From Mycetohabitans rhizoxinica HKI 454 (lineage in GTDB: Bacteria; Pseudomonadota; Gammaproteobacteria; Burkholderiales; Burkholderiaceae), in contig NC_014722.1 in NCBI RefSeq assembly GCF_000198775.1, positions 2,278,832-2,342,831 of the forward strand: DNA of 64,000 nucleotides, read 5' to 3'. The notes under the pieces were generated by a model that was not told where the DNA came from, ran no database searches, and was given only the letters and a program-made list of their open reading frames with translations. Both the position numbers and the translations under genes were made by a program. How positions within the stretch are numbered: the first letter of the stretch is position 1; each line of letters starts with the position of its first letter. Shown here piece after piece: positions 10,002 through 11,645 of this stretch.

Positions 10002-11645
10002 TTACATGTCCATGCCCATGCCACCCATGCCGCCCGGCATGCCGGCCGGTGCCGGTGCGTCTTCCTTCGGCAGCTCGCACACCGCCGCATCAGTCGTCAG
10101 CAGCAGACCAGCAACGGACGCCGCGTTTTGCAGCGCGGTGCGCGTGACCTTCGTCGGATCGACCACGCCGGCCTCGACCAGGTCGCCGTACTCGCCGCTC
10201 GCTGCGTTGTAGCCGTAGTTGCCCTTGCCGGCCGCCACAGCCGCGACCACCACGCTGGCCTCTTCACCGCCGTTCGCCACGATCTGGCGCAGCGGCTCTT
10301 CCATCGCACGCAGCACGATCTTGATACCGGCCTCTTGGTCGGCGTTCTCGCCCTTGACGCTGGCGATCGCAGTGCGGGCACGGATCAGCGCGACGCCACC
10401 GCCCGGCACGATGCCTTCTTCAACGGCGGCACGCGTGGCGTGCAGCGCGTCTTCGACACGCGCCTTCTTTTCCTTCATTTCGACTTCGGTGGCCGCGCCG
10501 ACCTTGATCACTGCCACGCCGCCCGCGAGCTTCGCGACACGCTCTTGCAGCTTTTCGCGATCGTAGTCCGACGTCGCTTCTTCGATTTGCGTGCGGATCT
10601 GCTTCACACGCGCCTCGATGTTCTTCGCTTCGCCCGCGCCGTCGATGATCGTCGTGTTTTCCTTCGCGACTTCGATCCGTTTGGCTTGGCCCAGCTCCTG
10701 CAGCGTAGCCTTTTCCAGCGACAGGCCGGTTTCCTCGGCGATGACCTGGCCACCGGTCAGGATCGCGATGTCCTCGAGCATCGCCTTACGACGATCGCCG
10801 AAGCCAGGCGCCTTGACCGCGACGGTCTTCAGGATGCCGCGGATGTTGTTCACCACCAGCGTCGCAAGCGCTTCGCCTTCGACGTCTTCCGCGATGATCA
10901 GCAGCGGGCGGCTGGCCTTGGCCACTTGTTCGAGCACCGGCAGCAGGTCGCGGATGTTCGAGATCTTCTTGTCATGCAGCAGCACGTACGGGTTCTCGAG
11001 GACGGCGACTTGCTTGTCCGGGTTGTTGATGAAGTACGGCGACAGGTAGCCGCGGTCAAATTGCATGCCTTCGACGACTTCGAGTTCGTCGGCGAGCGAC
11101 TTGCCGTCTTCAACGGTGATCACACCTTCCTTGCCGACTTTGTCCATCGCTTCAGCGATGCGCTCGCCGATCGACGTGTCGCTATTGGCCGAGATCGAGC
11201 CGACTTGCGCGATTTCCTTGCTCGTCGTGCACGGCTTGCTGATTTTGCGCAGCTCGTCGACTGCGGCGGCAACCGCCTTGTCGATACCACGCTTCAGGTC
11301 CATCGGGTTCATGCCCGAGGCGACATACTTCATACCTTCGCGCAACGATCGATTGCGCGATGCAACGGTCGCCGTCGTCGTACCGTCACCGGCGTTATCG
11401 CTGGTCTTGGAAGCCACTTCCTTGACCATTTGCGCGCCCATGTTCTGCAGCTTGTCCTTCAGCTCGATTTCCTTCGCGACGGACACACCGTCCTTGGTCA
11501 CCGTCGGGCCGCCGAAGCTGCGCTCGAGCACGACATTGCGGCCCTTCGGGCCGAGCGTCACCTTCACTGCGTTGGCGAGAATGTTCACGCCCTCGACCAT
11601 CTTCGCACGGGCGGAATCGCTAAACACAACGTCTTTAGCTGCCAT
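10002..11645 (-). CDS. groL: Chaperonin GroEL with an altered segment next to the ATP-binding loop
   Basis: The 60-kDa chaperonin subunit, 547 residues; forms the double-ring folding chamber with GroES. Almost the entire sequence is standard, including D87GTTT91, [11 protein letters not shown] and the GGM-type tail [10 protein letters not shown]. Residues 95-101 read ASRNRSL where close homologues have LAQSIV. The DNA explains it: three single-base insertions (two T and one A on the coding strand, 11347-11372) shift the frame and then restore it, leaving one extra residue. The altered helix directly follows the nucleotide-binding DGTTT loop. This may impair function, be tolerated because of another groEL, or be an assembly error. 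It lies 42 bases downstream of groES in one operon. Confidence 0.95.

What the first reader, a model, noticed from the sequence alone, without database searches (positions are those of the whole stretch)
11341..11376. Compensated triple insertion rewrites seven residues of GroEL next to the ATP loop
On the coding strand, three single bases have been inserted relative to the sequence that encodes the usual LAQSIV: GT(T)GC(A)TCGCGCAATCGATCGT(T)GCG. The intervening bases match what would encode AQSI but are read in another frame. The product has ASRNRSL at residues 95-101 and is one residue longer. This helix follows D87GTTT, one of the most conserved parts of the chaperonin. Either the protein tolerates this (rare), a second groEL does the essential work, or the assembly has errors here. 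In a shrinking genome, chaperonin changes are of particular interest.
Basis: partly seen in the sequence, partly recalled or inferred. Interest (0 to 1): 0.7.

Follow-up and report, generated by a model that had tools for sequence, protein, structure and literature searches.

The report
Probable sequence error in groEL
The seven odd residues in this fungus-dwelling bacterium's only GroEL chaperone are most likely a small cluster of base errors in an old genome sequence rather than a changed protein: 29 of 29 relatives examined lack them, and the same sequence also breaks the RNA polymerase gene rpoB, which a cell would be unable to lose.

Summary
groEL (10002-11645, minus) encodes ASRNRSL at residues 95-101 where 29 of 29 relatives' loci encode LAQSIV; the DNA is the usual sequence plus three single bases. 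It is the only groEL in the genome. A changed chaperonin is not supported. The genome matches Mycetohabitans (Burkholderia) rhizoxinica HKI 454, published from 8-fold Sanger reads. In the same deposit, single-copy rpoB and also rplK (L11) are frame-broken by single-base insertions while congeners are intact. Private single-base insertions outnumber deletions 23 to 11, against 17 to 31 in three congeners. Single Ns occur in its stretches and in none of the congeners'. Of 20 private substitutions in groEL, 18 are at third codon positions, so the gene has been kept under selection. In a search scoring 7998 candidate proteins, 119 others were listed and none matched the variant. A GroEL with one other difference carries the ordinary residues. 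A long-read re-sequencing of the type strain (2025 paper) is 188 bases shorter, as extra bases in the old sequence would predict; its groEL could not be read here and would settle the question. Verdict: probable sequencing or assembly artefact, low biological interest.

The parts
10002..11645 (-). groEL, 547 aa as deposited; the only groEL of the genome
   Evidence: ORF list; NCBIfam TIGR02348 GroEL 833.1 bits, cut-off 582.1; one match in G000
11341..11366 (-). segment with three extra single bases relative to all relatives examined; encodes ASRNRSL (residues 95-101) in place of LAQSIV
   Evidence: aligned insertion places 11344, 11361 and 11362 or 11364 depending on the aligner
11338..11345 (+). 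left arm of an 8-nt inverted repeat; holds the third extra base (third in coding direction)
   Evidence: the repeat finder I2, 100% complementary, 7 nt between arms
11353..11360 (+). right arm of the same inverted repeat
11688..11978 (-). groES, 96 aa, upstream of groEL
   Evidence: ORF list; NCBIfam NF001527 174.2 bits, cut-off 120
12063..12089 (.). TTAGCACTC-N9-GAGTGCTAA inverted repeat upstream of groES, an exact match to the CIRCE operator consensus as recalled
   Evidence: located by script; the consensus and its name are recalled, no call tested function

Best explanation
The seven-residue change is most likely an artefact: three bases were probably inserted in error within about 20 nucleotides when this genome was sequenced and assembled, and the living cell would carry an ordinary GroEL. 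Shown: the extra bases are in the deposited sequence and in none of the 29 relatives' loci read; the same deposit breaks rpoB and rplK, intact in congeners, by single-base insertions; and it carries an excess of private single-base insertions, clustered in patches, plus scattered Ns. Inferred: that the groEL cluster has the same origin as those, namely a poorly read patch of low Sanger coverage. A local inverted repeat (8-nt arms, one holding the third extra base) may have disturbed base calling, and both extra Ts fall at the wobble place of a valine codon so that T and G stand side by side, as if two calls for one base had both been kept. The frame survives because three extra bases add one codon.
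For: (1) Variant only here: 29 of 29 relatives' loci have LAQSIV; of 7998 candidates scored, the window's own protein stands alone at 76 bits and the other 119 listed are all at 58 bits (the remaining hits were not listed); the 26-mer is absent from genome contigs (which may leave out this genome's own records). (2) P0015, a GroEL on a 2,710,688-base contig of undisclosed source, equals the window's protein at every residue outside this segment except residue 9, and has LAQSIV. (3) rpoB, one copy, has an open frame of 721 against 1374 in three of three congeners, by one 1-nt insertion, stop at codon 681 of 1371; rplK (L11) has one 1-nt insertion, stop at codon 100 of 144. (4) Private 1-nt insertions:deletions 23:11 in G000 against 17:31 summed over three congeners (Fisher p 0.007; 20:11, p 0.020 without the three of groEL, which one search shows are among the 23). 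With G006 left out: 56:39 in G000 against 18:49 in two congeners. Per 1000 private substitutions 3.5 (3.05 without groEL) against 1.26. (5) 15 Ns in 400 kb and 5 in 100 kb of G000, none in the congeners' stretches; one N is itself an extra base in hisM. (6) Insertions cluster: 9 adjacent pairs within 300 nt against 2.2 expected (2 of 5000 simulations reach it; 7 against 2.0 with groEL counted once, 11 of 5000), and 5 against 0.76 in the second region (0 of 5000). (7) 18 of 20 private substitutions in groEL are at third positions: purifying selection. (8) The genome paper: Sanger, 8-fold average, low-quality or low-coverage regions brought to a minimum of two-fold (PMC3102044, passages). (9) The type strain re-sequenced at 105x is 3,749,950 bp, 188 shorter (PMC12696581, section 6); the net private gain of 14 bases in 220,231 aligned would scale to about +238 over the genome, while the three congeners together lose 14 in 661,084.
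Against: No reads could be examined and the re-sequenced groEL could not be opened. No N lies in the window, and single Ns are only presumed to come from the original assembly. The three insertions keep frame, which chance alone gives in about one case in three. Frame-breaking indels in otherwise conserved ORFs are not unique to G000: 31 places in 162,926 positions, but also 21 in 119,527 for G006 (nearly the same rate), 12 in 149,371 for G007 and 13 in 152,032 for G002; part of this is alignment noise and real pseudogenes. rplK loss is tolerated by some bacteria (recalled), so only rpoB is a gene that cannot be broken. The re-sequenced genome is over 99.97% identical to the old one, so errors are few. 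The 188-base difference may have other causes. Insertions near inverted repeats were enriched in one region (6 of 43, two of them groEL's own) but not the other (0 of 13).
Confidence: 0.93

Rival explanations
1. A real, recent and compensated mutation in strain HKI 454: three insertions recoded the start of the helix after the ATP loop, and the cell tolerates it.
For: The frame is kept over the full 547 codons and the rest of the protein is ordinary. GroEL was identified by MALDI-TOF in a secretome gel of B. rhizoxinica (spot III-7), 16 matching peptides, 41.0% coverage (PMC4166002, section 7), so a GroEL is made; the section does not say which peptides.
Against: Single groEL, an essential gene in bacteria where tested (established knowledge); LAQSIV in 29 of 29 relatives' loci; near-identical P0015 ordinary; Arg-Asn-Arg would enter a conserved helix and shift its register by one residue (inference; the structure predictions were useless); the same deposit breaks rpoB by the same kind of change.
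Confidence: 0.05
2. Template-switch (quasipalindrome) mutation, in the bacterium (then a cause of the first rival) or in the E. coli clone that was sequenced (then a kind of artefact): a hairpin with arms TCGCGCAA/TTGCGCGA templated at least the third extra base. Its odds overlap with the other readings.
For: The inverted repeat is perfect with the extra base present; G000-private insertions in one region lie at such repeats in 6 of 43 cases against 2.8% of random places.
Against: 0 of 13 in the second region; two of the six are groEL's own; the middle extra base is not explained by this repeat; the same repeat could also disturb Sanger base calling, so it does not separate the readings.
Confidence: 0.04
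3. A second, ordinary groEL does the essential work and this copy is free to drift.
For: Several larger genomes of the family have two or more matches.
Against: One match in the whole genome; one match in each of the seven congeners; 18 of 20 private substitutions at third positions.
Confidence: 0.01

Closest known systems
GroEL (group I chaperonin, TIGR02348 / PF00118)
   Same: Whole length, D87-GTTT ATP-loop residues, [12 protein letters not shown] and the other blocks as in relatives; 833.1 bits against a cut-off of 582.1
   Different: ASRNRSL in place of LAQSIV at 95-101, one residue longer
Single-base insertion errors in finished Sanger genomes (known artefact class, from general knowledge)
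   Same: Unique to one assembly, small extra bases, clustered, in a gene that must be intact (rpoB), Ns in the same assembly
   Different: Here the presumed errors happen to keep the frame, so groEL still reads as one open frame

Membership tests
GroEL (TIGR02348) | score above the curated cut-off over the whole length | tested here: met
   833.1 bits against 582.1, residues 3-528
GroEL (TIGR02348) | D87-G-T-T-T ATP-loop motif | tested here: met
   D87-T91 invariant in 15 of 15 aligned sequences
GroEL (TIGR02348) | ordinary helix after the ATP loop (LAQSIV in the relatives read) | tested here: not met
   as deposited, ASRNRSL; 29 of 29 relatives' loci LAQSIV
Sequencing or assembly artefact | seen in one assembly only | tested here: met
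   (one search lists 120 of 7995 hits)
Sequencing or assembly artefact | same kind of change breaks an indispensable gene in the same assembly | tested here: met
   rpoB; also rplK
Sequencing or assembly artefact | absent from independent sequence of the same strain | not testable with these tools
   re-sequenced type strain CP184277-CP184279 is named in PMC12696581; no search here returned it under that name
Sequencing or assembly artefact | reads or traces disagree at the place | not testable with these tools
   no reads are held
Quasipalindrome-templated mutation | extra bases complete an inverted repeat | tested here: inconclusive
   the third extra base lies in a perfect repeat; enrichment in one of two regions

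The most novel reading that the evidence does not exclude
HKI 454 truly lives on a single GroEL whose nucleotide-pocket helix was re-coded by three compensating insertions templated by a local hairpin: a chaperonin with shifted helix register and two new arginines near the ATP site, fixed in one endofungal strain.
Probability: 0.05. Interest if true: 0.7.

Novelty: not a real feature. Interest (0 to 1): 0.12.

Why it matters
If real, it would be a severe natural rewrite of one of the most conserved parts of an essential machine. As a probable artefact it matters practically: the genome used as the reference for this symbiont likely has extra-base errors in rpoB, rplK, groEL and other conserved genes, which would inflate counts of broken genes, and its apparent oddities should be checked against the newer long-read assembly first.

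Tried and rejected
AlphaFold2 on the deposited protein and on P0015 with alignments of 15 and 14 sequences gave mean pLDDT 33.0 and 35.5; both models are meaningless, were not searched against fold libraries and are not used as evidence.

Hairpin-templated origin of the insertions: tested by proximity to inverted repeats, mixed result.

An ectopic donor for the segment: an 11-base piece of it occurs 9 times in the genome, control (pattern reversed) 3; too short to mean anything. A 14-base piece was found only in the two loci that hold this same groEL, of the 48 loci then held.

A private insertion at 10001, just past groEL, appears in the blastn counts but not in the four-way MAFFT alignment, which shows instead a private deletion near 9995; 9962 appears only in the three-genome count. 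Neither is claimed. S9 in the window's GroEL looked odd in one alignment but congener G007 shares it; dropped. An insertion in a 205-aa ORF holding rpsL lies upstream of the S12 domain and is not counted as a broken gene, though it is one of the 23 private insertions. The rpoB insertion is not among the 23, as its place was not normalised alike in all three comparisons. In one search ORFs of 458, 262 and 663 aa have the same or neighbouring changes in other congeners, and ORFs of 285, 260, 143 and 80 aa lie in poorly shared or singly compared stretches; none is counted as broken (the 143-aa ORF meant here is not rplK, which has the same length).

Literature: 'Burkholderia rhizoxinica' with 'GroEL' gave six papers (listing); of these I read PMC4166002 in passages and section 7. 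PMC3102044, PMC12696581 and PMC11261895 were read as passages (45, 49, 54; 50), and PMC12696581 section 6 in full. In PMC5877345 a search for GroEL, GroES, chaperon and MiSeq found none. Nothing I saw mentions this groEL change; the other papers in the listings were not opened.

Full report
What is there. The groESL operon lies on the minus strand (groES 11688-11978, groEL 10002-11645). The deposited GroEL reads D87[21 protein letters not shown]. Compared with congener loci L002 and L004 it is the ordinary coding sequence with three single extra bases and no other difference between them.

Which genome. The window is G000:C2:2278832-2342831, in a genome of 3,750,138 bases whose C2 has 2,755,309. 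The published genome of Burkholderia (now Mycetohabitans) rhizoxinica HKI 454 has 3,750,139 bp with plasmids of 822,304 and 172,525 (PMC3102044, passage); 2,755,309 plus those two is 3,750,138. The identification is an inference from these lengths. That paper describes Sanger sequencing at eight-fold average coverage, with weak regions brought to at least two-fold (passage).

How unusual. One groEL in the genome and one in each of seven congeners. LAQSIV is found in 29 of 29 relatives' loci read here: 7 congeners and the 22 other best-scoring loci that offered from 150 genomes searched, 149 of them with a match; lower-scoring copies were not read. A search drawn from residues 84-124 scored the 7998 candidates sharing most words; the window's own protein is first at 76 bits and the other 119 listed are all at 58 bits and 83% identity over the stretch (the remaining hits were not listed). 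P0015, a 546-aa GroEL on a 2,710,688-base contig of undisclosed source, differs from the window's protein only at residue 9 and in this segment, where it is ordinary. The 26-mer was not found in genome contigs, a search that may leave out this genome's own records.

Test of the deposit. I compared 400 kb of G000 around groEL and 100 kb around rpoB with three congeners. rpoB has one copy and an open frame of 721 codons against 1374 in three of three congeners, because of a 1-nt insertion; its frame stops at codon 681 of 1371. rplK (ribosomal protein L11) likewise carries one extra base and stops at codon 100 of 144. A 525-aa ORF without NCBIfam match carries four extra single bases within about 210 nt. 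nusB, miaB, gmhB, ruvX and hisM also carry private extra bases, in hisM an N. A bacterium without an intact rpoB is not viable (established knowledge), so at least that insertion is almost surely an error of the deposit; loss of L11 is tolerated by some bacteria (recalled), so rplK is weaker evidence.

Rates. Where all four genomes align, G000 has 23 private 1-nt insertions and 11 deletions; the three congeners together have 17 and 31 (Fisher p 0.007). The three of groEL are among the 23; without them it is 20 and 11, p 0.020. With G006 left out, the counts are 56 and 39 in G000 against 18 and 49 in two congeners. Scaled by private substitutions the insertion rate is 3.5 per thousand (3.05 without groEL) against 1.26. 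The insertions cluster more than uniform placement allows. G000 has 15 Ns in the first region and 5 in the second, the congeners' stretches none. Against this, counting all frame-breaking indels in conserved ORFs, G006 has nearly as many per base as G000 (31 in 162,926 for G000, 21 in 119,527 for G006), so that measure alone is not decisive; the ratio of insertions to deletions and the broken rpoB weigh more.

Selection on groEL. Of 20 private substitutions in groEL, 18 are at third codon positions and 2 at first. The gene as a whole is conserved, which fits an ordinary functional protein with a local misread and not a decaying copy. GroEL protein has been identified by MALDI-TOF in a secretome gel of this species, 16 matching peptides and 41.0% coverage (PMC4166002, section 7); which peptides is not said there.

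Mechanism of the error, inferred. Both extra Ts stand at the wobble place of a valine codon (V94 and the valine that ends LAQSIV), leaving T and G side by side; relatives use G, A, T or C at the first place and G, T or C at the second. The third extra base lies in an arm of an inverted repeat with 8-nt arms. Poor base calling in a hairpin at low coverage, with both calls kept in the consensus, would give this picture. A real hairpin-templated mutation would resemble it, and the proximity test is mixed (6 of 43 against 2.8% expected in one region, 0 of 13 in the other).

Independent sequence. The type strain B1 (HKI 454) was re-sequenced by Nanopore at 105x: 3,749,950 bp, CP184277-CP184279, over 99.97% identical to the old assembly (PMC12696581, section 6). 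It is 188 bases shorter than the old one; the net private gain of 14 bases in 220,231 aligned would predict about 238 extra bases genome-wide, while the three congeners together show a net loss of 14 in 661,084. The agreement is suggestive only, since larger differences may contribute.

Verdict.

Noticed in passing
L104:986-5099 (G000:C2:940986-945099): rpoB, single copy, is frame-broken near its middle by one extra base in the deposited sequence; three of three congeners are intact.
   Followed up: yes
L103:18221-18653 (G000:C2:938221-938653): rplK (L11) is frame-broken by one extra base; three congeners without it.
   Followed up: yes
L105:6683-8264 (G000:C2:966683-968264): An ORF of 525 aa in congener G007, without NCBIfam match, has four single-base insertions within about 210 nt in G000: another likely misread patch.
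   Followed up: partly
window 6905-7320: ruvX (yqgF) carries a private two-base insertion close to its 3' end, so the deposited C-terminus is probably wrong.
   Followed up: partly
L014:5827-6262, L021:5896-7258, L021:15759-16315, L013:12121: nusB, miaB, gmhB and hisM carry private extra bases in G000, in hisM an N.
   Followed up: partly
window 12063-12089: Perfect TTAGCACTC-N9-GAGTGCTAA upstream of groES, matching the CIRCE/HrcA operator as recalled.
   Followed up: no
L005-L008: Four genomes of 1.1-1.2 Mb are grouped in the same genus (one protein hit, P0033, is named Candidatus Vallotia cooleyia, contig 1,174,085); all four keep LAQSIV.
   Followed up: partly
literature: PMC12696581 and PMC11261895 call the old HKI 454 assembly short-read Illumina, while its own paper PMC3102044 says Sanger.
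   Followed up: no
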